Positions 1-45,454 of a stretch of 45,454 bases of DNA are shown piece after piece. Positions within the stretch are counted from its first letter, which is position 1, and every line of letters begins with the position of its first letter. Source of the DNA: Bacteroidales bacterium. Lineage in GTDB: Bacteria > Bacteroidota > Bacteroidia > Bacteroidales > WCHB1-69. The notes under the pieces are model-generated. The model was not told the origin of the DNA and did not search any database. It worked only from the letters and a program-made list of their open reading frames with translations. Where the stretch lies: the NCBI GenBank assembly GCA_017615595.1, contig JAFZZT010000016.1:1-45454 (forward strand), read 5' to 3'. A program made the position numbers and the translations under genes.

Positions 1-230
1 ACTAAGGAGTTAAGAAGTTAAGAGGGTTTACGGTTTACTGTTTACTGTTTACCGATTAGGCGATGAGACGATTAGAGGAGAAAGAGGAGAAGGGAGGTGA
101 AGGGAGGAGAAAAGAGGAGAAAAGAGGAGACTAAAGGTTAAAACTTCTAATTTCTAACTTCTAACTCCAAACTTCTAACTTCTAACTGATAACTGACAAC
201 TGATCACTGTTCACTGATCACTGATCACTA
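1..230 (+). repeat. Mosaic short-repeat array, copy 1
   Basis: Low-complexity noncoding stretch made of successive short-period blocks. They are TTTACTG heptamers (about 28-56), CGAT-headed octamers (about 53-76), purine units like AAGAGGAGAA (about 75-131), CTTCTAA heptamers (about 145-187), then CTGACAA and CTGATCA heptamers (about 186-230). The same blocks in the same order recur elsewhere in the window, so this is an interspersed family. A reverse-complement copy lies at 2958-3150, and the two share about 55 identical bases across the TTTACTG and CGAT blocks. The array may begin before the window. No gene is visible in it. Confidence 0.9.
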
Positions 231-2956: not shown

Positions 2957-2957
2957 A

Positions 2958-3150
2958 GTTGTCAGTTAACAGTTGTCAGTTAGGAGTTAGAAGTTAGAAG
3001 TTAGAAGTTTTAACCTCTAGTCTCCTCCCTTCTCCTCTTTTCTCCTCTTTTCTCCTCCCTTCTCCTCTTTCCCCTCTTTCTCCTCTAATCGTCTCATCGC
3101 CTAATCGGTAAACAGTAAACAGTAAACTGTAAACTGTAAACCGTAAACGC
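2958..3150 (-). repeat. Mosaic short-repeat array, copy 2 (inverted)
   Basis: This is a reverse-complement copy of the array at 1-230, with the same blocks in the same order when read on the minus strand. It fills the whole convergent gap between hemW and the VWA gene. Read from the hemW stop it begins AGTTGTCAGTTAACAG, as other copies do after other stop codons. Confidence 0.9.
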
Positions 3151-4839
3151 CTAATTCCCGAAACGATAACCCACGTTCAGCGAGATGTTCCAGTAGGGAT
3201 GATGCGCCACCTGATAAGGCTCTACTGGCTCGGTGGCATTGGGATAATAGGTCGCCTTGTATCTGCCGACAGCGATGTCCGTGAAGAAATAGAGGTTCTT
3301 CACCGGGGTGGTGACACCCAAACGGAGCAGTCCGCCCACGGTGGTCTTGTCGGTATGCTTGCGTATCCAGTAAAACTCCTGACTGTTATCCGTGGCACCG
3401 TCATTGTCAGGATCATAGAAATAGGATTTGCCCTTCGTGGCCGTGGCAAAGCGGACATCCAGTCCGAGGCCGCCCATAAAGGCACACTTATGCACATAGT
3501 CGCCAGCCACCATCAGGACGCCGAGGTCGAGGTGCAGCGGTCCCGCAAAGTCATATTTCAGTGCGGCCAGTCCGCCTAAAGCCATATTGGTGGTCTTGAG
3601 CGGCACGGCGAAGTCGAAGCCCACACCCAAGCCAAACGTGTTGCGGTGGGAGATTTCAAAATCAAGTCCCGCATTGACTCCTACAAAGGCATCTCTACGA
3701 ACAGTGGTGATGGTCTCCTTGACCTCCGTAGCCTTCGTGCTGTTGTCGGTATAGTCGCCGATGGTCCAGCGCACCTTGCCCTGGTGGGCACTCGGCACAT
3801 AGCAGGTCAGGTTTTGCCAACGTTTGATGAGCTCCTGGGCCATCGTCTCAAACTGCGCCTCCACCTGCGTGAAGTCATTCAACAGGAACGGTGCCTCGGA
3901 GGAGATGCCCTCAAACACAGACTTGTAGAGTTGGTTGTCCTCGGCCACGTCATTGCCCTTGATGGCGATGACATAGCTCTTGAGCGGAGCACCTTCGATA
4001 GGACGGTTCACCACCTGGTCGCGGACATATTTGAAATAGGGATTCTCCAATCCTTTCTCCGGCAAGCCCAGCTCGGGGTCGGTGGAGTGGTTGTCGTAGC
4101 CATCCGTGAAGGAGACCATGCAGGCATAGTCGAATTTCTCTTTGTCCTTGTTGGGCAGACGGTTGACATAGTTGGAGATCATGTCGGCACCCTTGCGCAT
4201 GGCATAATACAAAGCGGTATTGTTGTAGAGGGTCAGTCCTTGGATGAACTTGATCATGTCATCGCGGGTGTTCATGGTCAGCGGCTCGATGTTATAGACC
4301 ATCTTGTCGGCATTGCCCATGGTGTTGAAGCCCACCACACCCAGTCGGATGCCGCCATCGGGAGAGGCGTTGTAGAGGATGTTGATGAACTTGGTGGCGC
4401 TGTTTTTCAGCTTCTCGAAGTTGGCTTCTCCCAAGGAGTTGCTACAGTCGAGGACCAGCATCACCACCATCACCTTGTCGGTCTCGAAGTTCTGCTGGGC
4501 GTCCTTCACCTCGCTGTCGCGCTGCCAGCTGTAGTCCTTGCCGTTATATTGCCATTTCCAGAACTTAAGACCTCCCTCGAAGCCCTCCGGGCACTCTGTT
4601 GTGGCCTTGTCGAAAGTAAAGGAGATAGACTCGTCCTTCTCCACTTTACCATAGATAACCTCCTTGGGTGTGAAACTGATGCCTTTGGAGGTGATATTGG
4701 TCAGCTGATAGACAAACTGGCCGCGGCTATCCTTGGTGATGGAGTAATCACCTTCGATATAGTATTTCGCTTTGTCCACCTGTGCAAAAGCGGCACCGGC
4801 AAAAAGGAAACAAGCCAAAAGAAGCATTAACTTTTTCAT
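3151..4839 (-). CDS. Secreted VWA-domain protein with C-terminal beta-barrel region
   Basis: The protein has 562 residues with a clear signal peptide (MKKLMLLLACFLFAGAAFAQ). A beta-rich N-terminal part (about 20-120) is followed by a von Willebrand A domain with the metal-site motif DCSNS (D131, S133, S135), a likely T208 and FTDGYD (about 244-249). From about residue 385 the sequence switches to alternating aromatic/glycine strands and ends in VGYRFGN, as in outer-membrane barrels. The likely picture is a VWA adhesion or scaffold domain displayed by a small outer-membrane barrel; the ligand is unknown. It appears monocistronic, with a candidate -7 box at 4921-4928 and the array plus the hemW-embedded hairpin downstream. 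An alternative is a periplasmic VWA protein whose C-terminal strands are not membrane-inserted. Confidence 0.75.
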   Translation of the reverse strand: MKKLMLLLACFLFAGAAFAQVDKAKYYIEGDYSITKDSRGQFVYQLTNITSKGISFTPKEVIYGKVEKDESISFTFDKATTECPEGFEGGLKFWKWQYNGKDYSWQRDSEVKDAQQNFETDKVMVVMLVLDCSNSLGEANFEKLKNSATKFINILYNASPDGGIRLGVVGFNTMGNADKMVYNIEPLTMNTRDDMIKFIQGLTLYNNTALYYAMRKGADMISNYVNRLPNKDKEKFDYACMVSFTDGYDNHSTDPELGLPEKGLENPYFKYVRDQVVNRPIEGAPLKSYVIAIKGNDVAEDNQLYKSVFEGISSEAPFLLNDFTQVEAQFETMAQELIKRWQNLTCYVPSAHQGKVRWTIGDYTDNSTKATEVKETITTVRRDAFVGVNAGLDFEISHRNTFGLGVGFDFAVPLKTTNMALGGLAALKYDFAGPLHLDLGVLMVAGDYVHKCAFMGGLGLDVRFATATKGKSYFYDPDNDGATDNSQEFYWIRKHTDKTTVGGLLRLGVTTPVKNLYFFTDIAVGRYKATYYPNATEPVEPYQVAHHPYWNISLNVGYRFGN

Positions 4840-4928: not shown

Positions 4929-5005
4929 CGGAATGTAAAGATGAGTTTTCATCTTCACGAAAAATAGTTATCAACCATTGATTTTTAACTAAAAAGGAGA
5001 TTCCC

Positions 5006-5028
5006 CTGATCACTGATCACTGTTCACT
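5006..5028 (+). repeat. CTGATCA-block remnant of the mosaic repeat
   Basis: Three heptamers of the CTGATCA type sit at the 3' end of the FKBP gene. The gene's TGA stop (5024-5026 on the minus strand) lies inside the first unit. Confidence 0.6.
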
Positions 5029-5554
5029 CCACCTCTACAATCATCACCACCGGCTCCCTTCCATTCACCTTGTCGCCGTCTCCAGCCACGCCGTATGCCA
5101 TATAGGAGGGGATCACCAGGCGGGCCTTGCCACCCGGCCGCAGCATGCGCACGGCCTCGTGCAAAGCATTGATCTCTTCCGACTTGGCCACTTTGAAGAC
5201 CTTCTCTCCATCCACTTCGGAATCATACAGCTTTTCGCCTGAGAGAAGGAAGGTCTGGTATTGCAAATGCACCATGTCATCCTCTTGGAACAGGTCGCCC
5301 TTGCCCTCATCCAGGATCTGGATATAGAGGCCCGTGCCGGTCTTCTCCATCTTCCACCCATAACGCTGGATAAAGAGCTCTATCTCCTCGTTTTCCAAGT
5401 GGATGATTCGCTTGTTGCCTTCCACATAGGGCGCTTCCACATCTTCTTTCTCCTCTTTGGTGCTGGACACCACAGAGCCTGTCGGATTGTTCCGATGGCA
5501 ACCCGACAAAAGAAGCAGAAGGGACAGTATCCAATATGACAGTCGGATTTTCAT
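5024..5554 (-). CDS. FKBP-type peptidyl-prolyl isomerase lipoprotein (GldI-like)
   Basis: The protein has 176 residues. A lipoprotein signal ends in LLSGC with the lipid cysteine at C19. An acidic linker (about 30-50) precedes an FKBP domain. Recognisable FKBP elements are VHLQYQTFLLSGEKLYDS, a GGKARLVIPSYMAYGV stretch (flap and active-site wall) and a closing VVMIVEVE strand. It should catalyse cis-trans proline isomerisation in the periplasm. In gliding Bacteroidota a similar lipoprotein, GldI, is needed for the type IX secretion/gliding machinery; assigning that role here is an inference. It lies 7 bases after the DHH phosphoesterase gene and is probably co-transcribed with it. The stop codon is embedded in a repeat remnant. 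Confidence 0.85.
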   Translation of the reverse strand: MKIRLSYWILSLLLLLSGCHRNNPTGSVVSSTKEEKEDVEAPYVEGNKRIIHLENEEIELFIQRYGWKMEKTGTGLYIQILDEGKGDLFQEDDMVHLQYQTFLLSGEKLYDSEVDGEKVFKVAKSEEINALHEAVRMLRPGGKARLVIPSYMAYGVAGDGDKVNGREPVVMIVEVE

Positions 5555-13249: not shown

Positions 13250-13419
13250 TAGTTTACGGTTTACAGTTTACCGATGAGGCGATTAAGGGTTAAGAGGTTA
13301 AGGGTTATAGTTTACCGATGAGACGATTAGGCGATTAAGGGTTAATAGGTTAGAGGTTAAAAGGTTAAAACTTCTAACTTAAAACTCCAAATTTCTAACT
13401 TCTAACTGACAACTGATGA
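13250..13419 (+). repeat. Mosaic short-repeat array, copy 3
   Basis: It carries TTTAC heptamers, CGAT blocks, AGGTTAA heptamers in place of most of the purine block, CTTCTAA units and a closing CTGACAA block. It ends at the stop codon of the gene at 13420. Relative to that gene it has the same orientation as copies at other gene ends. Confidence 0.88.
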
Positions 13420-16242
13420 CTATCTCACGATCGTGAGCGAGCCGTTGTAGTTCACCGTTTTGGCTTTCCCCTTGTAGTAGAAGCTGTAGTAATAGACCCC
13501 GTCGCTGAGGTTGGCGGCATCGAAGAACTGACTGCCCAGCTCGATCTGGCCATCACGGGAGAAGGTGTCATAGTTCTTGGCGGAATAGACCTTCTTGCCC
13601 CAACGGTCATAGATATAGAGCTTGTTGGTGCGGTACTCGTCAGGATCTTCCAGATTGATGTTGGTGTTGAGATTCTCGATAGCGAAGACATCGTTGATGC
13701 CGTCACCATTCGGGGTGATCACATTCGGGAAGACAAGGTCCTGTTCGATGACCACCGTGTGGGCGATCTCGCTGGCGCAACCGTCTTCCGTCTCAATATG
13801 GAGCACCACGTCATAGTCGCCCCATTGTGCAAACACATGGGTGGGCGAGATGGTGGCGGAATCGATCTCTCCGTCTGCAAAATCCCAATAGAAGGTGTTG
13901 GCAGGATCATTCAGAATATTGACATCCGCAAAATTGGTGAAGGCCACCTCTCCTTGCGTCTCCGCCATCAGCGAGATCTCCGGTGTCGCCGCGAACTCCG
14001 CTATCGGCTGCGCATTGACACGAATATAATCCCACCGGATGATGGAATCCACACAACCGTCTTGCGTGGTCACCTTGAGGTATAGCGTATAGTGTCCCGG
14101 ATCCACAATCTCGAAGGTCGGGTCGTATTGGTGGGAGGTCAGAACCGGGAAGCTGTTGGCATCCAGTACCAGCCATTGGAAGTCGGCATTCGTGGGGGTG
14201 GAATGGTTCGTGACATGGATAGTCAGAGGCGCACAGCCCTCCACAATGGTATTCTCGTAGTCAATGGAGGGGCTCTCATAGACATCCACATGGATGGAGT
14301 CGTAACCCGCGCAGGTCAGCACTCCAGTGGTGTCGTAGAAAGTCGATGTGACCGTCACCGCATAGTCGCCGTTGGTCAAGACCGAGATCGTCTCGGTCTC
14401 ATCGCCCGTGTTCCAGTGATAGACGGTGTTGCTGTCCGTGACGTTCATAGTCGGCTCCAGCTGCACCAGGTCGCCATGACAGATGCTGATGTCCTGACCG
14501 ACATCAGGATTCGGCGAGGGGTAAATCTGCAGCGGGATCAGGGTGTCATAGACGCATCCATACTCATCGATGACGCGATAGGTGTACATGATCGTGCCAG
14601 AGGTGTCAGGGTTGACGCCCGAGCCGTTGGCGCCCGGACCGATGACGTAGGTGGTATCTACATGGACCTCATACGACCAGTTCTGCGGCAACAGAGACGG
14701 ATCCAGTGCCATCTCCCACTCCACGATGTAACCGTTGTCGTTCGTCCAGAGATCCTGCACCTGGATGTACCAGGCGCCGTTCAAAGGACAGCCCACCATG
14801 CCGGCAAACGACTGGTTGGGGTGATAGACCTGTGTCATGTTGGCCACATCCGTAGAGTCGATCTTATAGGACATCGTGCCGCTGTCCCAGTAGGGGTTGG
14901 TAGTATATTGCACGTTACCAGGTTCATAGCAGTAGCCGTACGTGGTGTTGGCATATTGATAGCCCAGCGTGGTGTTATTGGACCAAACATAATTCCAGGG
15001 GATGCCCATCGGGTTCTGGGAAGCATTGCAGGTGGCCACCTCCTGTTGACGATTGGCCACGCCCAGGTTCGTACGGAAATAGTGGGTGATGCCACCCCAG
15101 CCATCGTTCTGGTAATCCGGCACAATGCGGCACACATTGCCTGTCGGGCAGACGAAGGTGATACGGATATCCTCAATAGCGGAGTGTTCCATCTTGATAC
15201 GCACATAGAGGATGTCGTTGGCATTGGTGATCGTGGCATTCGGGGCAAAGGAGGTGAAGTTGACGTAGGAACGGTAATAGTAGCCGTAGGGAGGACAGCT
15301 CACGCCGTCTGGCAGGAAGACCGTGTCGGTGACGCCCAACGAAGTGATCTGTTCACTGCCCACCGGGGTCAGCTGGACGTTGGAGACTTGGTCGTAGCCA
15401 TAGCTGAGGATCATCTCATCGCCGGAGCAGAAAGGATACGGCGGCACCACATGGTCGATCGGGTTCTGCGAGGTGCGCACCCTGAAGGCGACCGGGATCA
15501 GCGACACGCATTGCGACTGGTCTTCGGCCATCACGGAGAAGTCATAGCCGCGGCCCGGAATGAAATAATAGTCCACCTGATTGCACCCCAGGGTGTCCAG
15601 TTCTTCCAAGCCGAAGTCCCAGTGGAAGGTGGTGGTCGCATCGCTTTGGTTATAGCTGTAGTTATTGTCGGGATAAATACCTTTGATCGCCAAGTGTATC
15701 GTATCATACGGGCAGACATCCAGATAATAGTAACCATCCGTGTCTATCGCCGGGATTTTGGAGCAGAGCGCACTGTCCAGCTCCAGAAAGATGCGCTGGC
15801 AGGGCGCCATGCAAGAGGCAAAGACGGTGAAGCCACCACCCCCGCCCGTGGCATCCGACTTGAAATAAACGGTCACAGCCCCCGTGGTGTTCTGGATGGT
15901 GGCCGCATAGCGGAAGGTGCCGGTCGGATCGTAATTGCTGTTGTTGATTTTATGCAACACGGTCGCGTTCGTGTCAATGCCGTCATAGAAGATGAGGGTG
16001 TCAGACGGGTCAATGTCGAGCGTCTGGACCTCCACCAACACACTGGCATTGGAAGGGTCATTGGAATAAATGGTCAGCGTCTGATGCGCATTCGGAGAAT
16101 AGTCTCCCGAAGTTCCGCCGTCATCATGAATCAAAAAGGAGCAATTGGTGACAACGGCTTGACTTCCCATCAGCACTTCACTTTGGGCCCACAAAAGCGA
16201 GGTGAATACAAGGAGCGATAAGGTTAGTATAAGCTTTTTCAT
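13420..16242 (-). CDS. Type IX-secreted multidomain protein (CUB, P-domain, PKD, type-B CTD), paralog 1
   Basis: The protein has 940 residues from the ATG at 16242, where the signal peptide MKKLILTLSLLVFTSLLWAQ begins; a start six codons earlier is less likely. An N-terminal CUB-like domain (about 20-145) contains CSFLIHDDGG and ends in a GGGGGF turn. A region with a proprotein-convertase P-domain pattern follows (about 285-520; IEDIRITFVCPTG, LNGAWYIQVQDLW). PKD-like domains come next (CAPLTIHVTNHSTP, FYWDFADGEIDS). The C-terminus is a gliding-motility-associated sorting domain (FPNVITPNGDGINDVF, YIYDRWGKKVY, ending NGSLTIVR). Such proteins pass the outer membrane by the type IX system and end up on the surface or outside. 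No protease or glycosidase domain is visible, so adhesion or scaffolding is an inference. It is a tandem paralog of the next gene upstream. Confidence 0.88.
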   Translation of the reverse strand: MKKLILTLSLLVFTSLLWAQSEVLMGSQAVVTNCSFLIHDDGGTSGDYSPNAHQTLTIYSNDPSNASVLVEVQTLDIDPSDTLIFYDGIDTNATVLHKINNSNYDPTGTFRYAATIQNTTGAVTVYFKSDATGGGGGFTVFASCMAPCQRIFLELDSALCSKIPAIDTDGYYYLDVCPYDTIHLAIKGIYPDNNYSYNQSDATTTFHWDFGLEELDTLGCNQVDYYFIPGRGYDFSVMAEDQSQCVSLIPVAFRVRTSQNPIDHVVPPYPFCSGDEMILSYGYDQVSNVQLTPVGSEQITSLGVTDTVFLPDGVSCPPYGYYYRSYVNFTSFAPNATITNANDILYVRIKMEHSAIEDIRITFVCPTGNVCRIVPDYQNDGWGGITHYFRTNLGVANRQQEVATCNASQNPMGIPWNYVWSNNTTLGYQYANTTYGYCYEPGNVQYTTNPYWDSGTMSYKIDSTDVANMTQVYHPNQSFAGMVGCPLNGAWYIQVQDLWTNDNGYIVEWEMALDPSLLPQNWSYEVHVDTTYVIGPGANGSGVNPDTSGTIMYTYRVIDEYGCVYDTLIPLQIYPSPNPDVGQDISICHGDLVQLEPTMNVTDSNTVYHWNTGDETETISVLTNGDYAVTVTSTFYDTTGVLTCAGYDSIHVDVYESPSIDYENTIVEGCAPLTIHVTNHSTPTNADFQWLVLDANSFPVLTSHQYDPTFEIVDPGHYTLYLKVTTQDGCVDSIIRWDYIRVNAQPIAEFAATPEISLMAETQGEVAFTNFADVNILNDPANTFYWDFADGEIDSATISPTHVFAQWGDYDVVLHIETEDGCASEIAHTVVIEQDLVFPNVITPNGDGINDVFAIENLNTNINLEDPDEYRTNKLYIYDRWGKKVYSAKNYDTFSRDGQIELGSQFFDAANLSDGVYYYSFYYKGKAKTVNYNGSLTIVR

Positions 16243-16288
16243 AATTTTGCAAAAAGACAAAGCAAAAGTGCAAATATTTTTGATATAT

Positions 16289-16340: not shown

Positions 16341-19175
16341 CTATCGTATGATCGTGAGCGAGCCGTTGTAGTTGACCGTCTTAGCCTTACCTTTGTAGTA
16401 GAAGCTGAAGTAATAGACTCCATCATTCAGTTGGGAACCATCGAAGAACTGAGTGCCCAGTGAGATCTGACCATTGCGGGAGAAGGTGTCATAGTTCTTG
16501 GCAGAATAGACCTTCTTGCCCCAGCGGTCGTAGATATAGAGCTTGTTAGTACGATACTCGTCAGGATCTTCGAGGTTGACGTTCGTGTTGAGGTTCTCGA
16601 TAGCGAAAACATCGTTGATGCCGTCTCCGTTAGGCGTGATCACATTCGGGAAGACGAGGTCTTGCTCGATGACCACCGTATGGGCGATCTCGCTGGCGCA
16701 GCCGTCTTCCGTCTCGATGTGGAGGGTCACGTTATAGTCACCCCATTGGGCGAACACGTGGGTCGGGGCCACCGTGGAGGAGTCTATCTCACCGTCGTCG
16801 AAATCCCAGTAGAAAGAGGAACCGGCTTGTGTCATCACGGCTTCGTCGGAGTAGTTGGTAAAGGCCACTTCGCCATTGTTCTCAGACATCAGGGAGATCT
16901 CGGGGGTGGCGGCAAATTCCGCGATGGGCTGCGCGTTGACGCGGATATAGTCCCAACGCATCAGAGAATCCACACAACCGTCCTGGGTGGTGACCTTCAG
17001 ATAGAGGCCATAGTGACCCGGTTCTTCAATCTCGAAGGTAGGACTAATCTGGTGTGAGCTCATGGCCACAGCGCCATTGCTGTACAGCACATACCACTCG
17101 AAATCGGCATTGGTCGGGGTCGATTGGTTGTTGATGTGTACCGTCAGCGGCGCACAGCCTTCTATGGCCGAGTGCGTGTAGTCTATCTGCGGACTCTCAT
17201 AGACGCCCACATGTATCGTGTCCGCACCGGTACAGAAGAGGGTCGTGCCGGGTTCCGAGTAGTCGGAAGTAACCTTCAGGATATAATCCCCGTCCGTCAC
17301 CACATTGATCGTTTCGGTATCATCACCCGTATTCCATACATAAGATGCATTGGGATCACTGTAATGAGCATCCAGGGTGATCATGTCGCCATGGCAGATC
17401 ATCAGATCTTCACCAAGGTTAGGCATGGGAGACTGATGCACTTCGAGAGGCATGATCGTATCGAACACACAGCCGGCGTCATCGACCACATAAAGGGTAT
17501 ATTCCAAGGTGCCGGCGGTGTCGGGCACGATCTCGGTACCGTTGGCACCAGGGCCATACAGGTAGGTGGTATCGACCACAATCTGGTAGGCCCAGTCTGC
17601 AGGCATCAGGGACGGATCCAAAGCGAGCTCCCATCCGCAAATATATCCATTGTCAGATCCCCATGCATCCACCACCTCGATGCTCCACATACCATTCATC
17701 GGACAGCCAATCAAGTTGTTGAATCCACCATCGGGGTGATAAACATTTGTCATGGCAACAGTGTTGGTAGAATCCACATAGCTGCCATTGATATGGTTAC
17801 AGGTCTCATAGACATGGCTAGCGCCACAGGCATATTGATAGCCCTGGTTGGTGGCATTGGACCAGCAGTAGTTCCAGCAGGTTCCCATAGGATTGGCCGC
17901 CGGGTTGCAGACGCTGCCATCCGGTTCATAGTATAGTCCGAAATAGGCGGCAGATGTACCATAGTTGCCTAACCAGCCATACTCTGTTGCTGGGATGACA
18001 CTTGCACAACTGGAGGAACCTGACGATCCGTATTTTCTCATCAGAGAGACATATTGTCCATTTGGGCAGGAGAGACGGATCCATACATCCCCGATATAGG
18101 AGTGCTCAATTGAAAGACGCACATAAAGAATGTCATTCGCGCTCTGGATGGTTGCGGATGGGGCGAAGGCGGTGAACGTTACAGGAGACGAATAGGAACA
18201 TCCATTACCGCATTCCTGACCATCCGGGAGGAAAATGGTGTCAGACACGGCCAGTGTAGTGGCCTGCAAACTCTGCACGGTATCCAACTGCAGGTTGGAC
18301 ACTTGGTCGTAACCGGCAATCAAGTTCAGCGAGTCTCCCGTACAAGCAGGAGGCAACGGGATCAAACTGGCAATTGGGTTAGCCGATGTCTTGACCCTAA
18401 ATACTTGTGGAATATGCGAATAGCATTCCGAACTATCGCTGATCATCAGGGAGACGTCATAGCCTCTTCCGCCAGGGAATTGATATTCTAAAGTGCTATA
18501 GCCGACACTGTCGATCTCTTCCACACCCAAATCCCAGTGGAACATAGAGGTCTGGTCGTTCTGGTTGTAGCTGAAGTTATTGTCGGGATACTCACCGTAG
18601 GCAACCAGATGGAGTGTCTCACCCGGGCACATCGTGATATAGTAAAAACCATCATCCTCCAGCCTGGGGTATTTGTTGGACAGCAATGTGTCGAACATCA
18701 CATTGATACGCTGGCATGGAGCCTCGCATGTACTCAGAATGGACCAACCTTCACCACCGCCGGAACCATCGGACTTAAAACGGAGCGTAAGTGCGCCCGT
18801 AGTATTGGATATGGTAGCCGCATATTTGATGGTGGGAGCACTAACCAATGCCACCAATGAATCATTCAGCTTGGCCAAGATCAGCGAGTCAGCCATCACC
18901 GGTCCGTCATAAATATAGAGCGTATCCGACGGGTGCACATTGAATCCGTTGAGCTGGATCTCTACAGAGACTGCCGCGTTGGACGGATCATTGGAATAAA
19001 TGGTCACATAATAGTCCTGGTTGGCACTATAGTCATTGTTCAGACCACCATCGTCGTAGATAGTGAAAACACAACCCGTGTAAACAGTCGTGGTACCCTG
19101 ACCCATCGTGATGACTTGGGAGTACGACAACGTCATACAGCAAATAAGAGCCAATAGTGTGAATATCTTTTTCAT
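16341..19175 (-). CDS. Type IX-secreted multidomain protein (CUB, P-domain, PKD, type-B CTD), paralog 2
   Basis: The protein has 944 residues with signal peptide MKKIFTLLALICCMTLSYSQ. Domain order matches the neighbour at 13420: a CUB-like domain (CVFTIYDDGGLNNDYSANQ), a P-domain-like region (IGDVWIRLSCPNGQY, MNGMWSIEVVDAWGSDNGY), PKD-like domains, then a type-B C-terminal sorting domain ending NGSLTIIR. The last roughly 250 residues are nearly the same in both paralogs, while the middle differs by substitutions and by insertions rich in Cys, Gly and Ser. This points to tandem duplication with later homogenisation of the 3' end. It lies 24 bases after the small secreted gene at 19200, probably in the same transcript, and is followed by a strong terminator. 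Confidence 0.88.
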   Translation of the reverse strand: MKKIFTLLALICCMTLSYSQVITMGQGTTTVYTGCVFTIYDDGGLNNDYSANQDYYVTIYSNDPSNAAVSVEIQLNGFNVHPSDTLYIYDGPVMADSLILAKLNDSLVALVSAPTIKYAATISNTTGALTLRFKSDGSGGGEGWSILSTCEAPCQRINVMFDTLLSNKYPRLEDDGFYYITMCPGETLHLVAYGEYPDNNFSYNQNDQTSMFHWDLGVEEIDSVGYSTLEYQFPGGRGYDVSLMISDSSECYSHIPQVFRVKTSANPIASLIPLPPACTGDSLNLIAGYDQVSNLQLDTVQSLQATTLAVSDTIFLPDGQECGNGCSYSSPVTFTAFAPSATIQSANDILYVRLSIEHSYIGDVWIRLSCPNGQYVSLMRKYGSSGSSSCASVIPATEYGWLGNYGTSAAYFGLYYEPDGSVCNPAANPMGTCWNYCWSNATNQGYQYACGASHVYETCNHINGSYVDSTNTVAMTNVYHPDGGFNNLIGCPMNGMWSIEVVDAWGSDNGYICGWELALDPSLMPADWAYQIVVDTTYLYGPGANGTEIVPDTAGTLEYTLYVVDDAGCVFDTIMPLEVHQSPMPNLGEDLMICHGDMITLDAHYSDPNASYVWNTGDDTETINVVTDGDYILKVTSDYSEPGTTLFCTGADTIHVGVYESPQIDYTHSAIEGCAPLTVHINNQSTPTNADFEWYVLYSNGAVAMSSHQISPTFEIEEPGHYGLYLKVTTQDGCVDSLMRWDYIRVNAQPIAEFAATPEISLMSENNGEVAFTNYSDEAVMTQAGSSFYWDFDDGEIDSSTVAPTHVFAQWGDYNVTLHIETEDGCASEIAHTVVIEQDLVFPNVITPNGDGINDVFAIENLNTNVNLEDPDEYRTNKLYIYDRWGKKVYSAKNYDTFSRNGQISLGTQFFDGSQLNDGVYYFSFYYKGKAKTVNYNGSLTIIR

Positions 19176-19782: not shown

Positions 19783-19905
19783 GTTTATGGTTTACCGATG
19801 AGGAGAGGAGAGGAGAAAAGAGGAGAAAAGAGGAGAAGGAGGAGAGTAGGCGATCAACTCCTAACTACTAACTTCTAACTCCTAACTGCTAACTGACAAC
19901 TGTTA
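19783..19905 (+). repeat. Mosaic short-repeat array, copy 4
   Basis: The copy holds two TTTA(T/C)GG/CG heptamers, a CGAT unit, about six purine units (GAGGAGAAAA type), then CTAACTC/CTTCTAA heptamers and a CTGACAA/CTGTTAA end. The TAA stop of recQ (19903-19905 on the minus strand) lies inside the last unit. Together with 19705-19782, where nothing is seen, it fills the gap between recQ and the small secreted gene's promoter. Confidence 0.88.
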
Positions 19906-21807
19906 ACTTTCACCCCCAAACTCTCCCTCCTCCACCATCCTTCTCATCACCTCAACCATTTCATCTTCAGCGTATTGGGCGGCGAGGCGGTCGAGGATAT
20001 CCCGAAGCGAGAGGTTCTGGTCGTACATTGTCTTGATGTCGGTGCGCATCATCTCCTCTTTGTTGCCCTGCTTCATCTGTTTCCGATGGGAGATACAGAC
20101 ATCGCACGAGCCGCAGGGTTCGCTTTTTGTCTCCCCGAAATAACTGAGCAACAGCTGACTACGACAAGTGTAATCGGTGATCACGTAGTGGATGACCGCC
20201 TCCAGGCGCTCTTCCGCACGGCGTTTGCGGTCGTCATAGTCCTTCGGGTCAAAATAGAGATGCTTGGCGTCAATGCGGTTCTCCAAAAAGACCAACAAGG
20301 GTATCTCGCTCTGCGGCTCATAGGTGAGCACCTTGTCGCTGTGGAGCAGTTTCAGTTGTTCTGCAACCTGTTCGACTGTCATTTCAGCGCGGGCAGCGAT
20401 CACCTCTTCCTGGATATTCACGAACTGGGTGAAGACTCCCGCATACGAGCGCAGCAGGAGTTTCACGAACGTCTCATTTTGCGGCTGCATCTTGTAATAC
20501 TGCATCAACTCATCGCCGTACATCTTGAAATGGATCTTGGAGGTGTCGCGCAGGTGCTCCGAGACCACGATGGCGCCTGTCTTCTCCAAGATTCTCAGCG
20601 CATTGTAATACTGGTTAACATCCATCTTCAGCTCTTTGGCATTTTGGGAAAGAGAGAAGGGAAAGGTCAGATTCTGTCCGGCGCCCATCGGGATCTTATA
20701 ATGTTGGCACAGATGCTCATAGACCTCCCGCACCCTCTCGATGGGCGGGAAGGAGAGCGTGAGGTTGCGTCTCAGCTGACGGATGTCGTACTCGTCATAG
20801 AGCATGATGGCCACCGAGGGTTTGAGGTCGCGGCCTCCGCGCCCCGCCTCTTGGAAGTATGCTTCCAGCGTATCTGGTATGTCGAGGTGGATGACGAAGC
20901 GCACATCGGGTTTGTCGATGCCCATGCCGAAAGCGTTGGTGGCCACGATGACGCGTGTCTTGCCGGTCATCCAGGCCTCCTGCTTGCGGTCGCGCTCGCG
21001 AGCCTCCACGCCGGCGTGGTAATAGTCGGCGGACACGCCATTCTGGCGCAGGAACTCCGCCACCTCCTGCGTCTTGCGGCGGTTGCGCACATAGACGACA
21101 CCCGTGCCGGGGTAGCGCTGCATGATACGCAACATACGTCCATTCTTGTCCGACTCCTTCACCACGAAGTAGGTCAGGTTGTCGCGCTTGAAGCTCTTCT
21201 GGAAGACATTCTCCTCCTTGAAATGGAGCTTCTGCTGGATGTCCTTGACGACCTCAGGGGTGGCCGTGGCGGTCAGGGCCAGGACGGGCACCTGGGGGAA
21301 GAACTGCCGGATCTCGGCAATCTGCAGATAGGGCGGACGGAAGTCGTAGCCCCACTGGGAGATGCAGTGCGCCTCGTCCACGGCGATCATGTGAACCGGT
21401 ATCTTGGGCAGGTTCGTCAGGAAAGTCTCCGTGCGCAAGCGTTCCGGCGAGACGTAGAGAAAGCGGAACTCCTCGTCAAAGAGGGCGTTGCTCATGACGC
21501 TGAGGATCTCCTCGCGGCTCATGCCGGAGTAGATGGCCGCCGCCTTGATGCCGTTGGCTTTCAGATGGGCCACCTGGTCCTTCATGAGCGACACCAGCGG
21601 GGTGACGACAATGCAGACGCCGCCCAAGGCGAGGGCGGGCACCTGAAAGCAGACCGACTTGCCGCCTCCTGTGGGCAGCAGCGCCAGCGTATCCCTACCC
21701 TCCAGCACGGAAAGGATAATATCCTCCTGCAACGGCCGGAAAGCGGGATATCCCCAGTATTGCTTGAGGATATCATGGATTTGTATGGTACGATCTGTTG
21801 TTTCCAT
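19903..21807 (-). CDS. recQ: RecQ-family ATP-dependent DNA helicase
   Basis: The protein has 634 residues from the ATG at 21807 (METTDRTIQ). The frame is open 45 codons further, but that part crosses the promoter and the divergent MATE start. Superfamily-2 helicase motifs are LLPTGGGKSVCFQVPAL (Walker A), VDEAHCISQWGYDFRP (DEAH plus RecQ motif 0/II), LALTATATPEV, NAFGMGIDKPDVRFV and QEAGRGGRD. The zinc site CRSQLLLSYFG...CGSCDVC lies near residue 550-571, after an extra segment of about 200 residues that contains winged-helix-like stretches. There is no HRDC domain; only about 63 residues follow the zinc site. RecQ unwinds DNA at stalled forks and in recombination repair. It is a single gene, divergent from the MATE exporter. 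Confidence 0.92.
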   Translation of the reverse strand: METTDRTIQIHDILKQYWGYPAFRPLQEDIILSVLEGRDTLALLPTGGGKSVCFQVPALALGGVCIVVTPLVSLMKDQVAHLKANGIKAAAIYSGMSREEILSVMSNALFDEEFRFLYVSPERLRTETFLTNLPKIPVHMIAVDEAHCISQWGYDFRPPYLQIAEIRQFFPQVPVLALTATATPEVVKDIQQKLHFKEENVFQKSFKRDNLTYFVVKESDKNGRMLRIMQRYPGTGVVYVRNRRKTQEVAEFLRQNGVSADYYHAGVEARERDRKQEAWMTGKTRVIVATNAFGMGIDKPDVRFVIHLDIPDTLEAYFQEAGRGGRDLKPSVAIMLYDEYDIRQLRRNLTLSFPPIERVREVYEHLCQHYKIPMGAGQNLTFPFSLSQNAKELKMDVNQYYNALRILEKTGAIVVSEHLRDTSKIHFKMYGDELMQYYKMQPQNETFVKLLLRSYAGVFTQFVNIQEEVIAARAEMTVEQVAEQLKLLHSDKVLTYEPQSEIPLLVFLENRIDAKHLYFDPKDYDDRKRRAEERLEAVIHYVITDYTCRSQLLLSYFGETKSEPCGSCDVCISHRKQMKQGNKEEMMRTDIKTMYDQNLSLRDILDRLAAQYAEDEMVEVMRRMVEEGEFGGES

Positions 21808-21815
21808 TCGGGTTG

Positions 21816-21844
21816 CAAAGATAATAAAAAGGCTGAAAAGGCAA
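21816..21844 (-). promoter_or_regulatory. recQ promoter
   Basis: On the minus strand, TTG (21842-21844), an 18-base gap and TATCTTTG (21816-21823) form a full match to TTG-N17-23-TAnnTTTG. It lies 8 bases before the recQ ATG, giving a very short leader. Confidence 0.7.
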
Positions 21845-21857
21845 GCGTGATTTTTAT

Positions 21858-21865
21858 TATTTTTG
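21858..21865 (+). promoter_or_regulatory. -7 box for the MATE gene
   Basis: TATTTTTG fits TAnnTTTG and ends 9 bases before the ATG at 21875. No TTG lies at the expected upstream spacing. It is back to back with the recQ promoter, so the two genes may share upstream DNA. Confidence 0.5.
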
Positions 21866-21874
21866 CGCTCTTGT

Positions 21875-23278
21875 ATGAAAAACAGCATCGACACCCCGTC
21901 ACTGGCTCTTGAGCAGCAGCCGGTCAGCCGTCTGTTCCGCAACTATGCGGTGCCGGCCATCTTGGCTACGGCGGCCAGTTCGCTGTACAACATCATTGAC
22001 CGCATCATCATCGGACAGGGGGTAGGACCGCTTGCCATCTCGGGGTTGGCGCTGACCTTCCCCATCATGAACCTCTCGATTGCCTTCGGCACGCTCATCG
22101 GCTCCGGCAGCAGCGCCATCGCCTCCATCCGACTGGGGGAACACCGCTATCGGGAAGCGAATCGCGTGCTGGGCAACAGCTTGATACTCACGGTCGTCAT
22201 CAGCCTCTTCGTCACCTTCCTGTTCCTCCTGTTCCTGTACCCTCTGCTGCTTTTCTTCAAGGCGAGCAACGACACCCTACCCTACGCCCGCGATTTCCTG
22301 AAGATCATCCTCTACGGCATCATCGTTTCCAACCTCTTCTATGGACTCAACGGCATGATGCGCGCCACCGGGCACCCCAAAAAAGCGATGGTGTCCATCC
22401 TGCTGACTGTCGGGCTCAACCTGATCCTCGCCCTGCTCTTCGTGTTGGGGTTTCACTGGGGCATCCGGGGAGCGGCCTGGGCCACCGTATTGGCCCAACT
22501 CGGCGGACTGGCTTGGGTCCTGGCCCACTTCCTGAACCCCAAGACAGAGGTGCGCTTCACCCGCGAGAGCATCCGCTTCGACTGGAAGATCACCAGAGAG
22601 GTGTGCGCCATCGGGTTGTCGCCTTTCCTCATCCACCTCTGCTCCTGTGTGGTCATCATGCTCATCAACATGCAGTTGAAGAGATATGGCGACATGGACT
22701 TCACCGGCATCAGCATTGACGGCAAGCCGGTGGCGGGTGGCGACTTGGCCATCGGTGCCTTCGGCATCATCAACAGCATCGTGGGTTTCATGGTGATGGT
22801 CATCTTCGGACTGGCCCATGGTCTGCAACCCATCGCGGGCTACAACTACGGGGCCGGCCGCCTCGACCGTGTGCGGGAAGCGCTGAGACTGGCTATCCAA
22901 TGGGCCACCGTGGTCTCTGTCGTCACCTTCGCCCTCTGCATGCTCTTCCCCAAGACCATCACCGGCATCTTCACCAAGGATTATAACACCACCCTGATCA
23001 CCGCCCGCGGGTTGCGCCTTTATGTGTCCATGTTCGTCTTCACCGGCTTCCAGGTGGTCACTTCCATCCTGTTCCAATCGGTCAACAAGGCAGGCATCAG
23101 CATTCTGCTGTCCACCACCCGGCAGGTGCTATTCCTCGTGCCTTGCCTGCTGCTCCTGCCGACTCTCTTCCATACCGACGGTGTCTGGATCTCGCAGGCC
23201 GCCGCCGACCTCCTCGCCGCCCTGGTCACCGCCGGGGTGCTGCTCTATCATCTGCGGAGAGGCGTGCTGAAGAAATGA
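21875..23278 (+). CDS. MATE-family multidrug/cation exporter
   Basis: The protein has 467 residues with about twelve membrane segments. The ATG at 21875 is chosen over an in-frame TTG at 21863 that is part of the -7 box. Family features include AVPAILATAASSLYNIIDRIIIG near the N-terminus, GSGSSAIASIRLGE, a repeat of the fold after about residue 235, and GLAHGLQPIAGYNYGAGR. These fit the MepA/DinF-like MATE branch, which expels cationic drugs or metabolites in exchange for Na+ or H+. It is a single gene closed by the terminator at 23357-23396. The substrate is not predictable. Confidence 0.9.
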   Translation: MKNSIDTPSLALEQQPVSRLFRNYAVPAILATAASSLYNIIDRIIIGQGVGPLAISGLALTFPIMNLSIAFGTLIGSGSSAIASIRLGEHRYREANRVLGNSLILTVVISLFVTFLFLLFLYPLLLFFKASNDTLPYARDFLKIILYGIIVSNLFYGLNGMMRATGHPKKAMVSILLTVGLNLILALLFVLGFHWGIRGAAWATVLAQLGGLAWVLAHFLNPKTEVRFTRESIRFDWKITREVCAIGLSPFLIHLCSCVVIMLINMQLKRYGDMDFTGISIDGKPVAGGDLAIGAFGIINSIVGFMVMVIFGLAHGLQPIAGYNYGAGRLDRVREALRLAIQWATVVSVVTFALCMLFPKTITGIFTKDYNTTLITARGLRLYVSMFVFTGFQVVTSILFQSVNKAGISILLSTTRQVLFLVPCLLLLPTLFHTDGVWISQAAADLLAALVTAGVLLYHLRRGVLKK

Positions 23279-23330
23279 GAAGATCTTAAGAGTCAAGAAA
23301 CTAAGGGGTGCCGTCGCAGGTCCAGGTTTC

Positions 23331-23350
23331 AACTTCTAACTCCTAACTTC
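23331..23350 (+). repeat. CTTCTAA-block remnant of the mosaic repeat
   Basis: About three heptamers of the CTTCTAA block lie just beyond the terminator at the rpsE end of the ribosomal operon, in the same orientation relative to rpsE as other copies have to their genes. The rest of 23279-23330 shows nothing recognisable. Confidence 0.6.
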
Positions 23351-23356
23351 AAAACT

Positions 23357-23396
23357 AAAAAAAAGCGGTTTGCCGTTGCCGGCAGACCGCTTTTTG
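23357..23396. terminator. Bidirectional terminator between MATE and rpsE
   Basis: AGCGGTTTGCCG (23364-23375) pairs, with small mismatches, with CGGCAGACCGCT (23380-23391). An A run precedes it and a T run (23391-23395) follows. It closes both the MATE message (plus) and the ribosomal protein message (minus), showing that the ribosomal operon really ends at rpsE. Confidence 0.85.
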
Positions 23397-35123: not shown

Positions 35124-35455
35124 CTCACGCAGATTTCGCAGATTCACGCAAATTTTTTTTCTTGTTGTATTCGGCCATGGCAGACCTCTTGCCTGTGCCC
35201 CTCCTAAACAAATCAACGAATCAACAGTTCAACAAACACTCTTAGCGTCCTTTGCGCCTTTGCGGTATGATCACTCACGCAGATTTCGCAGATTCTCGCA
35301 GATCTTTTTTCTTGTTGTATTCGGCCATGGCAGACCTCTTGCCTGTGCCCCTCCTAAACAAATCAACAAATCAACGAATCAACAGTTCAACAAACACTCT
35401 TAGCGTCCTTTGCGCCTTTGCGGTATAATCACTCACGCAGATTTCTCAGATTCTT
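35124..35455 (+). repeat. Long tandem direct repeat, 150/158 bp, 2.2 copies
   Basis: Unit 1 is 35124-35273, unit 2 is 35274-35431, and a partial third unit starts at 35432. Units 1 and 2 are almost identical. The 8-base length difference is one extra AATCAACA octamer in unit 2. Each unit is itself a mosaic of CGCAGATTT-type 9/10-mers, a unique middle (TTCGGCCATGGCAGACCTC), AATCAAC octamers and TTTGCGCC octamers. No ORF fits. The repeat accounts for most of the roughly 520-base gap between 35065 and 35584; 35104-35123 and 35456-35471 show nothing else. Confidence 0.9.
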
Positions 35456-43681: not shown

Positions 43682-43873
43682 AAGGAGAGGAGGAGTTAAA
43701 AGTTAATAGATAATAGTTAATAGATAATAGTTTACCGATGAGACGATTATGCGATGAGACGATTAGAGGAGAAAGAGGAGAAAGGAGGAGATTAGGCGAT
43801 CAACTTCTAACTTCTAACTTCTAACTCCAAACTTCTAACTTCTAACTGACAACTGACAACTGACAACTGACAA
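43682..43873 (+). repeat. Mosaic short-repeat array, copy 5
   Basis: The blocks in order are GTTAATA/GATAATA heptamers (43695-43729), a TTTACC unit, CGAT octamers (about 43736-43765), purine units, a second short CGAT unit, CTTCTAA heptamers, then four CTGACAA heptamers. It fills nearly the whole gap between the TonB receptor and the type IX substrate at 43877 and ends 3 bases before that gene's stop. Confidence 0.9.
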
Positions 43874-43876
43874 ATT

Positions 43877-45454
43877 TTATCTGATCACCGTCACGCTTCC
43901 CGTCACGTCCCTCGTCTCGTGGCCGCGGCTCTTGTAGCGGACGAAGACCACATAGACCCCGTCTGGCACACCCGCGGCGTCCCACCCCTGCTCCTTGGAT
44001 TTCGTGTCGAACATCACCATGCCCCACCGGTCGTAGATCGTCATCTCGTAGCTCTCCACTTCGTCAGGGTAGCTGAAGACCGGCAGGAAGAGGTCGTTGA
44101 GACCGTCCCCGTCTGGCGTGAAGCTGTTGGGCATCCACAGCTCCTGGTCGCACGGCTCGTACTCCACGGCGATGTCGTCCCCGTGCTCGAAGCACTGGTT
44201 GCTGGCTGTGACGCTGTAGGTGCCCGGGTATCTTACCAGATAGGTGGACTGCGTTGACCCGTCCTGCCACTCGTAGTCGCAGAAGGGCACGCCGGCGGAG
44301 AGCGTCAGCGTTCTGCCCTCGCAGAGGGTCGTGTCGGGACCCAGATCCACCATGAAGTCGGTGAGGTAGCCCACGGCGATGGTGTCGCTGGCGCCGAGAC
44401 AGTGGTCGGTGACGACCACCCAGTACTGGCCGTCCTCAAAGACGGTGTAGGTCGTGTTGGTGCTTTGGTCCTGCCACACATATTGGGCCGGATGCGGCTG
44501 AGTGGCGTCCAGCAGGAGGGTGGCCAGCTCGCAGAGGGTGCTGTCGTTGCCGAACTCCACGGACGACTGCGGGTAGAGGTCTATGGTGAAGAGGTCGCTC
44601 TCGGCCCTGCAGCCCAGGTTGGTGACGGTGACGGAGTAAGTACCGGCGCTATCGAGGGTGATGGCAGGCGTGTGCGCCCCGGTGCTCCACTGGTAGCTCA
44701 GCACGTTGGGCTGCTCCACGGAGAGCTGCGCCCCGTGGCAGAGCGTGTCGTCATGGCAGTAGGTGAACACCGGCGGGGGCACCACGACCACGAAGGTGGT
44801 GCTGGTGTCGGGGCAGCCGTCATAGTGGAAGACCAGCTGCACGGCAAGGGTGTCCGCCTGCGTCAGCGGGAAGAAGAGCTCGGGAAACGGGTAGGAATCG
44901 CCGTTGTAGATCCACTCCACGGGCACGGAGTCGGGGTTGTGCTCCACACGCAGTTGGAGGGTGTCGTTGACGCAGCGATAGACGGTGTCGCCGTTGTGGA
45001 GGGTGAGGCCGGTGTGGTTGTCCTGGTAGGCCTCGGCGCTGTAACAGCCGGCGGCGCCGCTGTGGTAGTAGTAAAGGTAGGTAATGTCGTCAATCTCATG
45101 GTGTCCGGCGGGCGCGGGACCCACGTTGTAGCCGAACTCATCGACGTAGGCCGAGAAGCCGCGCTCGTTCTCGATGCGTATAATCTCGGGGATGTCGTCG
45201 TTGTAGAAATAGAGCTGAGTGACCCAGTACTCTCCATTCGTCATGGGGAAGGTATCAAAGGCGGTGGGCGGGATGAGCTGCCCGTTGAAGTAGGTGCTGC
45301 CGATGCCATCCTCATGGGTATAGATCTGCACGTCCACATAGAGGGAGTCGCAGGGCGCGAAGACAGTGTCGCCAGCCGTGGTGACGAGCGTGCGCCTGAG
45401 GTTGTCGCGTGTGGTGGGGTACACCCACTCCTTGACCATCCGCTCGGTGGGCTG
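43877..45454 (-). CDS. Type IX-secreted protein with type-B C-terminal domain (5' end outside window)
   Basis: 526 codons are visible and the frame is open through the right edge, so the start lies outside; the ATG at 45439 is internal. Repeated Ig/PKD-like modules carry the pattern CHG(A/D)xL...YQWSTG...(G)TYSVTVTN, for example LSYQWSTGAHTPAITL and YEWQDGSTQSTYLVRY. The C-terminus has PNSFTPDGDGLNDLFLP, YDRWGMVMFDT and ends in TGSVTVIR, the gliding-motility-associated sorting domain. It should be secreted by the type IX system and sit on the surface. Its sorting domain is clearly diverged from those of the two paralogs at 13420-19175. Confidence 0.87.
   Translation of the reverse strand, partial: QPTERMVKEWVYPTTRDNLRRTLVTTAGDTVFAPCDSLYVDVQIYTHEDGIGSTYFNGQLIPPTAFDTFPMTNGEYWVTQLYFYNDDIPEIIRIENERGFSAYVDEFGYNVGPAPAGHHEIDDITYLYYYHSGAAGCYSAEAYQDNHTGLTLHNGDTVYRCVNDTLQLRVEHNPDSVPVEWIYNGDSYPFPELFFPLTQADTLAVQLVFHYDGCPDTSTTFVVVVPPPVFTYCHDDTLCHGAQLSVEQPNVLSYQWSTGAHTPAITLDSAGTYSVTVTNLGCRAESDLFTIDLYPQSSVEFGNDSTLCELATLLLDATQPHPAQYVWQDQSTNTTYTVFEDGQYWVVVTDHCLGASDTIAVGYLTDFMVDLGPDTTLCEGRTLTLSAGVPFCDYEWQDGSTQSTYLVRYPGTYSVTASNQCFEHGDDIAVEYEPCDQELWMPNSFTPDGDGLNDLFLPVFSYPDEVESYEMTIYDRWGMVMFDTKSKEQGWDAAGVPDGVYVVFVRYKSRGHETRDVTGSVTVIR

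What the first reader, a model, noticed from the sequence alone, without database searches (positions are those of the whole stretch)
1..230. Interspersed mosaic arrays built from blocks of different short periods in a fixed order
At least five long copies (1-230, 2958-3150, 13250-13419, 19783-19905, 43682-43873) share the same block order: TTTACTG 7-mers, CGATTAGG 8-mers, AAGAGGAGAA-like 9/10-mers, CTTCTAA 7-mers, CTGACAA 7-mers and sometimes CTGATCA 7-mers. Individual blocks gain and lose units between copies, but the order holds. An ordinary microsatellite has one period; a mobile element has fixed length. This has neither. The nearest known analogue I can name is the STRR heptanucleotide sequences of heterocystous cyanobacteria, which are single-period.
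Basis: seen in the sequence. Interest (0 to 1): 0.78.

Follow-up and report, generated by a model that had tools for sequence, protein, structure and literature searches.

The report
Ordered mosaic repeats between bacterial genes
Some gaps between genes in this gut bacterium hold real repeat mosaics, made of different short tandem repeats that nearly always follow the same order and that recur across the genome and in sister species; they look like spacer DNA that expands and spreads by copying errors and recombination, with no sign so far of a gene or a known mobile element behind them.

Summary
All five arrays are there, built from 7-, 8- and 10-base blocks in the order T (GTTTACn), C (CGATkAGn), P (purine 9/10-mers), Y (AACTTCT), D (AACTGAC/CACTGAT); array 3 lacks P and array 5 has little T. 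The family is not confined to this contig: in 44 chosen stretches of the genome 29 arrays hold at least three block types and 26 keep the order, against 1.55 expected. The order recurs in three sister species: 7 of 7, 2 of 2 and 1 of 1 distinct arrays. Arrays lie in gene spacers. Where the D end faces a gene 3' end it is within 15 nt in 28 of 39 cases; the T end in 4 of 29. At matching spacers of four relatives, unit numbers differ and the T-C core is mostly absent, while plain heptamers are often present. No clear fold, Rfam match or RVT_1 gene accompanies it. Best reading: a spacer satellite that grows by slippage and spreads by recombination between arrays. Intergenic heptamers are known in Bacteroidetes; the ordered multi-period mosaic is a new variant.

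The parts
1..229 (+). Array 1, T-C-P-Y-D: T about 26-52, C about 53-74, P about 75-130, Y about 142-187, D about 185-229; preceded by a GAGTTAAGAAGTTAAGAGG stretch; possibly cut by the contig start
   Evidence: orthologous array in G043
2957..3150 (-). Array 2, T-C-P-Y-D read on the minus strand; fills the whole spacer between two convergent stop codons (HemN-like ORF 1832-2956 and VWA ORF 3151-4839)
13250..13419 (+). Array 3, T-C-(GGTTAAGA units)-Y-D, no P block; D end abuts the stop of ORF 13420-16260
19783..19908 (+). Array 4, T-C-P-Y-D; the array supplies the TAA stop of the RecQ-like ORF 19903-21942
43682..43873 (+). Array 5, (TTAATAG heptamers)-C-P-Y-D; D end next to the stop of CHU_C-domain ORF 43877-45439, other end on the 5' side of TonB-receptor ORF 41188-43632
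   Evidence: orthologous array in G042 (L099, L154)
23331..23347 (+). Short Y-only stretch in the 23279-23369 spacer
4997..5028 (+). Short D-type stretch (CTGATCACTGATCACTGTTCACT) overlapping the end of ORF 5024-5554

Best explanation
The arrays are a non-coding spacer satellite. Short tandem heptamers of the theme AGTTnnn arise and persist just behind stop codons or just before promoters, where they do little harm. Replication slippage adds and removes units in each block. Recombination between arrays at different places (crossover or gene conversion, primed by the shared Y-D heptamers) copies the T-C-P core from long arrays into short ones; this keeps block order and orientation and needs no transposase. 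Selection removes arrays outside spacers. Shown: the ordered family, its spacer location, its presence in sister species, unit-number differences at orthologous spacers, and presence or absence of the core beside shared heptamers. Inferred: slippage, ectopic recombination as the copier, the direction (gain, not loss) of the core, and the absence of a positive function.
For: Order kept in 26 of 29 own arrays and in 7/7, 2/2 and 1/1 distinct arrays of G043, G042 and G001 (overlapping loci counted once by hand). Junctions recur: the T-C junction GTTTACCGATnAGnCGAT (up to 1 mismatch) has 30 own, 7 G043 and 3 G001 matches, 0 in the reversed controls of these three (not every match was inspected and a few may be coding), which speaks for copying of a pre-formed mosaic. 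Orthologous arrays differ in units: slot 1 own T4 C3 P7 Y6 D6 against G043 T3 C5 P2 Y6 D4; slot 5 own T1 C5 P3 Y6 D4 against G042 T2 C5 P4 Y1 D2. In the 7 spacers where own has T or C units, of 23 relative cells 3 have T or C units, 13 have AGTT heptamers only and 7 neither. Truncated arrays keep D more often than T (27 against 10, p = 0.008). One local rearrangement has arrays at exchanged joints: own TonB-a5-CHU_C and X-S-a26-Z, G042 TonB-S-array-CHU_C-X-array-Z. No RVT_1 match in own, G001, G042 or G043; Y1_Tnp presence does not track the arrays.
Against: Slot limits were set by hand and one AGTTnnnAGTT pair was enough to count, so some 'heptamers only' cells may be chance or convergent. 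Seven of 23 cells have neither heptamers nor core, so a seed is not needed everywhere or was lost. Insertion by an unknown mobile mechanism would also give present/absent spacers. The 27-against-10 asymmetry counts Y-D heptamers, which are also a wider class of their own, and 3 of the 10 lie at contig starts. The rearrangement rests on MAG contigs, and the CHU_C gene has near-identical copies (one 141-mer shared by three contig ends), so misassembly or paralogy is possible. No experiment or read data show slippage or recombination.
Confidence: 0.55

Rival explanations
1. A non-autonomous mobile element: the mosaic is inserted whole by an enzyme (a Y1/RAYT transposase or another one) and then varies by slippage.
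For: Dispersed on both strands with fixed order and polarity; full mosaics at spacers where relatives have none or only short heptamers; a Y1_Tnp gene exists in own (1 match) and in 36 of 40 genus genomes.
Against: Length is not fixed and I saw no palindromic ends. Y1_Tnp matches do not follow the arrays: own 1, G042 0, G043 3, G049 6, although G049 has no T-C junction. No RVT_1 match in own; other transposase or reverse-transcriptase families were not searched. Target-site duplications were not tested.
Confidence: 0.2
2. A functional regulatory element: 3'-UTR, terminator-like, translation-coupling or protein-binding arrays selected for their position.
For: D ends sit within 15 nt of the gene end in 28 of 39 facing gene 3' ends against 4 of 29 for T ends; the five window copies carry stop codons in all six frames; one of ten folded pieces (array 2) is somewhat better than shuffles (z -2.19, 7 of 200 shuffles as good); known heptamers in Beggiatoaceae and Xanthomonas also lie close to one neighbouring ORF.
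Against: Array orientation to genes is not significantly biased (D end at 3' ends 39, at 5' ends 27, p = 0.18). Convergent, divergent and codirectional spacers are all used. Folding of the other nine pieces is near shuffles (z -1.21 to +0.82). No Rfam match in the window at gathering score. Orthologous spacers of relatives mostly lack the core.
Confidence: 0.15
3. An assembly artefact of short-read MAGs that collapses or joins low-complexity reads.
For: At least 11 contig ends have an array within 350 bp (listed by hand; not all 106 ends were read) against 1.3 expected: the arrays do seem to break the assembly, and counts and some junctions may be wrong.
Against: Orthologous spacers in sister MAGs hold the same mosaic with different units, and the arrays end at conserved stop codons and promoters.
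Confidence: 0.03

Closest known systems
TAACTGA intergenic heptamer repeats of Beggiatoaceae, Cyanobacteria and some Bacteroidetes (MacGregor 2015, PMC4679880; abstract and sections 8, 9, 12, 24 read, plus passages)
   Same: Seven-base tandem units of the same theme (TAACTGA is a rotation of AACTGAT, part of our D block), intergenic, patchy across species, stop codons in all frames on one strand; in Gramella and Aequorivita other heptamers lie beside them, and in Elizabethkingia 'larger assemblages of heptamer repeats'.
   Different: That paper counts one heptamer; its single-base relatives were rarely repeated in the main genome. No ordered mosaic of 7-, 8- and 10-base blocks in what I read; in its main genome most copies lie just upstream of start codons, here the D end favours stop codons. 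Its supplementary figures, which show the Bacteroidetes assemblages, could not be read.
GGGAATC / GGGGATT heptamer repeats of Xanthomonas and Nostoc (PMC4692102; passages read)
   Same: Intergenic heptamers, 186 and 183 in two Xanthomonas genomes, nearer to the 5' neighbouring ORF, with length variation between close species.
   Different: One G-rich unit type; the majority stand between the same genes in the two species; no block order in the passages read.
STRR heptanucleotides of heterocystous cyanobacteria (recalled; only a search listing seen)
   Same: Seven-base tandem repeats between genes.
REPIN / RAYT elements (PMC3116915; only listing and start of abstract seen)
   Same: Short, dispersed, many copies per genome.
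   Different: REPINs are palindromic elements tied to a RAYT (recalled); here no strong fold, no fixed length and no link with Y1_Tnp counts.

Membership tests
Intergenic heptamer simple-sequence repeats of bacteria | tandem units of 7 bases | tested here: met
   T, Y and D blocks have best lag 7, or 14 where 7 is close behind
Intergenic heptamer simple-sequence repeats of bacteria | confined mainly to intergenic DNA | tested here: met
   71 of 74 array pieces outside predicted ORFs of 70 aa or more (simple ORF caller, long arrays may be split); coding DNA periodic 0.00-0.06%
Intergenic heptamer simple-sequence repeats of bacteria | a single unit and period per array | tested here: not met
   periods 7, 8 and 10 in one array, fixed order
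TAACTGA repeats as in Maribeggiatoa | most copies a few nt upstream of a start codon, forward orientation | tested here: not met
   D end faces 3' ends 39 times and 5' ends 27 times; within 15 nt of the gene end in 28 of the 39
REPIN / RAYT element | palindromic, strongly folding unit | tested here: not met
   nine of ten folded pieces of 126-149 nt have z between -1.21 and +0.82, the tenth -2.19
REPIN / RAYT element | partner Y1 transposase in the genome | tested here: inconclusive
   one Y1_Tnp match in own, none in G042 which has arrays, several in genomes without the T-C junction
MITE-like insertion element | fixed length | tested here: not met
   the 29 multi-block clusters span 80 to 358 bp
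MITE-like insertion element | target-site duplications | not tested
   relatives' spacers are too changed at the ends to define the target
Reverse-transcribed element | a reverse transcriptase in the genome | tested here: not met
   0 RVT_1 matches in own (92% complete), G001, G042, G043; other RT models not searched
Known structured RNA family | match at Rfam gathering score | tested here: not met
   0 matches in the window

The most novel reading that the evidence does not exclude
Ordered mosaics of short-period blocks are a recurring class of bacterial satellite DNA in Bacteroidales. They spread without any transposase, by recombination from heptamer seeds behind stop codons, rewrite spacer DNA in each species with its own vocabulary, and act as joints at which gene order is rearranged. 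Hints: a different mosaic (CACATAG, AACAATAG and AACTTCT/AACCTCT blocks) that runs three rounds in the same order within one locus of another family (L192), and patchy high heptamer counts elsewhere in the order (G124 175 and G226 158 with control 0 for a loose pattern; 28 and 13 for a strict one).
Probability: 0.3. Interest if true: 0.75.

Novelty: new variant of a known kind. Interest (0 to 1): 0.52.

Why it matters
Bacterial tandem repeats are usually treated as single-period slippage products. A family in which four or five different repeats keep one order at dozens of places, while each block changes length, suggests that arrays exchange and copy sequence across the chromosome. It offers sister species with orthologous, heptamer-only and array-free spacers, so seeding, slippage and recombination can be told apart, and it bears on how spacer DNA and gene order turn over in gut Bacteroidales. 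The arrays also seem to break short-read assemblies, so they may be under-counted in MAGs.

Tried and rejected
All intergenic DNA of the genus made of such repeats: rejected. Unselected stretches show 2 of 43 spacers with a periodic tract in own, 0 of 21 in G043 and 0 of 47 in G053, G024, G030 and G029 together; the window, with 6 of 19, is array-rich. The six unselected own stretches hold no multi-block array.

RNA structure as the conserved feature: nine of ten pieces fold near shuffles, one at z -2.19; no Rfam match. An A-rich tail behind D as a retroposon sign: in several copies the A run leads into what reads as the neighbouring promoter (ACTAAAAAAnTGTATCTTTGC; promoter motif recalled), and no RVT_1 match is present. 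RAYT link: no correlation. Phage link: 0 matches of a 20-base T-C pattern in viral contigs. A strict gene-orientation rule: 39 against 27, p = 0.18.

Counting notes: 4 of the 74 clusters are P-only matches that read as coding sequence; they stay in the 74 but do not enter the 29. The 74 pieces are another set (P pattern left out, long arrays split). G043 clusters were listed with overlaps (11) and counted by hand as 7 distinct. Of the 12 loci of the genome-contig scan, 6 are Bacteroidales MAGs of the RGIG project; of the 6 others I looked at 3 (L097, L098, L106), single matches without an array, and did not look at L102, L104, L107. Of the seven genus genomes with a single T-C match only that of G042 was read.

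Papers: searches; a 17-base stretch of Y repeats is in no held paper. That no ordered mosaic is in print rests on these searches alone; supplements could not be read.

Full report
What is there. The window is contig C43 of a 2.11-million-base genome in 53 contigs. The five arrays of the finding are present. Block names used here: T (GTTTACn), C (CGATkAGn), P (purine 9/10-mers such as AAGAGGAGAA), Y (AACTTCT, AACTCCT, AACTCCA), D (AACTGAC, AACTGAT, CACTGAT). Best lags are 7 for T, Y and D (14 where 7 is close behind), 8 for C and 10 for P. Array 3 lacks P. Array 5 has one GTTTAC unit and TTAATAG-type heptamers in its place.

More than chance. In the own genome the 17-base Y pair with up to one mismatch has 100 matches (overlapping ones counted apart), 56 on one strand and 44 on the other, and none in the reversed control. 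A search with array 1 gives 59 matches at E up to 1, a lower bound because 40 of 112 candidates were scored. In the window 6 of 19 spacers of 40 bp or more hold a periodic tract; in six unselected 20-kb stretches of the same genome 2 of 43; in three of G043 0 of 21; in G053, G024, G030 and G029 together 0 of 47; shuffles and coding DNA about 0. So the arrays are discrete, not the general state of spacers, and this window is rich in them.

The order. I parsed 44 own stretches (the window, L031-L066, L172-L178; 426,507 bases), chosen because they held hits. Of 74 clusters 29 have at least three block types, and 26 of these stand in the order T-C-P-Y-D; 1.55 are expected for random order. Pairwise counts, canonical against reversed: T-Y 21:0, T-D 20:0, C-Y 24:0, C-D 23:0, P-D 22:0, Y-D 39:5, T-C 26:1, C-P 19:1, T-P 18:3, P-Y 21:1. 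Block hits lie on the majority strand of their cluster in 704 of 734 cases. Sister species: 7 of 7 distinct multi-block arrays in G043, 2 of 2 in G042 and 1 of 1 in G001 have the order (duplicates of overlapping loci removed by hand). One G043 copy (L108, also L125) has an extra block, AGCTAATGGCCAATAGC, between P and Y. T reads as AGTTTAC or GGTTTAC on one strand, Y and D as AGTTAGA and AGTTGTC on the other, so the mosaic looks like two related heptamer arrays facing each other around the C-P part (read from the sequence).

Distribution. The T-C junction with up to one mismatch occurs in 10 of 40 genus genomes: 30 matches in own, 7 in G043, 3 in G001 and one each in seven others, of which only G042's was read; the reversed control has two matches in the 40 genomes. 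A 20-base version in the genome-contig collection finds 12 stretches: 6 in three RGIG Bacteroidales MAGs and 6 in unrelated genomes, of which the 3 inspected are single matches without an array. Viral contigs: none. Plain Y-type heptamers are wider but patchy. With a loose 20-base pattern (up to 3 mismatches) 106 of 198 genomes of the order have a match, many with as many control matches; the highest are own 215 (reversed control 6), G124 175 (0), G226 158 (0), G128 131 (21) and G207 113 (34), while same-genus sisters such as G225 and G125 have 0. With the strict 17-base pattern G124 has 28, G207 18 (control 1), G226 13 and G103 11, against 100 in own.

Where they sit. With a simple ORF caller, 71 of 74 array pieces lie outside ORFs of 70 aa or more; the other three are L066:64, L066:1958 and L172:41, two of them at a contig start. 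The D end faces a gene 3' end 39 times and a 5' end 27 times, not a significant bias (p = 0.18); the caller is wrong at L034:15419, where the sequence shows the D end at a stop codon. When the D end faces a 3' end it lies within 15 nt of it in 28 of 39 cases; the T end in 4 of 29 (Fisher p = 2e-6). In 7 cases the neighbour's stop codon lies inside the array. Array 4 supplies the TAA of the RecQ-like gene; in G001, without the array, the same frame ends two codons earlier at a TAG. All five window arrays have stops in all six frames.

Comparison at the same spacers. Flanking genes were matched in G043, G042, G001 and G005 and the spacers read. Ten spacers give 33 relative cells: 24 hold at least one AGTTnnnAGTT pair, 3 hold T or C units, 8 hold none of the blocks scored. 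In the seven spacers where own has T or C units there are 23 relative cells: 3 with T or C units, 13 with heptamers only, 7 with neither. Spacer B is the clearest: own has a full mosaic of about 170 bp; G043, G042 and G005 have about 3 to 6 heptamers directly behind the same stop codon and then another repeat type; G001 has no repeat that I could see. At spacer 1 own and G043 share the whole mosaic with different unit numbers; at spacer 5 own and G042 do. Slot limits were set by hand and some 'heptamer' cells rest on one pair.

Recombination. In G042 one contig reads TonB - S - array - CHU_C - X - array - Z. In own, contig C43 reads TonB - array 5 - CHU_C, and contig C26 reads X - S - array - Z. 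S keeps the T side and CHU_C the D side of its array, as a crossover between two directly repeated arrays would give. Caveats: both are MAGs, and a 141-mer of the CHU_C gene is shared by three contig ends. This is one case.

Mechanism. I commit to slippage within blocks plus recombination between arrays, with short Y-D heptamers as seeds (55%). The excess of arrays that keep D over those that keep T (27 against 10) fits, but Y-D heptamers are also a wider class of their own and 3 of the 10 lie at contig starts. Transposition by an unknown enzyme (20%) is not excluded; Y1_Tnp and RVT_1 give it no support. A positive regulatory role (15%) is not excluded: against it stand mostly weak folding, no significant orientation bias and absence of the core in most relatives.

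Novelty. Intergenic heptamer repeats, their patchy spread, their stop codons and their presence in some Bacteroidetes with neighbouring heptamers are in print (PMC4679880), and heptamers that vary in length between close species are known in Xanthomonas (PMC4692102). What I did not find in print, within the searches, is an ordered mosaic of different periods repeated at dozens of places and followed at orthologous spacers. I file it as a new variant of a known kind.

Noticed in passing
window 35124-35453: A 150-bp unit repeated twice (91% matches) with CACGCAGATTT, CAACAAATCAACGAATC and GCGTCCTTTGCGCCTTTGCGG phrases: another spacer repeat vocabulary.
   Followed up: no
L052 4396-4503; L145, L236, L237: A roughly 40-bp palindrome-bearing phrase (CCTTGAGCAGCCCCGTnAGGGGCAAGAGCTCGGTAGAA) sits inside or beside heptamer arrays in several species; it may be a REP-like element belonging to the single Y1_Tnp match of the genome (G000:C4:83416-83760).
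   Followed up: partly
L044, L056, L063, L173 (contig starts C19, C29, C38, C35), L053 (C30) beside arrays; L031 (start of C46) without an array at once: Variants of the phrase AACGGTCAACCTTATTTAGGCATTGACA recur, mostly at contig starts; perhaps the end of an insertion sequence.
   Followed up: no
L192 (G207, another family of the order): An independent ordered mosaic of CACATAG, AACAATAG and AACTTCT/AACCTCT blocks, three rounds in the same order.
   Followed up: partly
window 13420-16260 and 16341-19175: Neighbouring paralogous large ORFs, 86% alike over 300 nt at their 3' ends; the first carries CHU_C and PKD domains.
   Followed up: no
window 45314-45454: The last 141 bases equal the start of contig C26 and, reversed, the end of C12: the CHU_C gene is an assembly repeat.
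   Followed up: yes
L069, L070, L071, L072, L084, L092 (other genus members): Runs of 5 to 15 GTAAACn heptamers end within 5 nt of an ATG in these six loci; here a role in translation start would be worth testing.
   Followed up: partly
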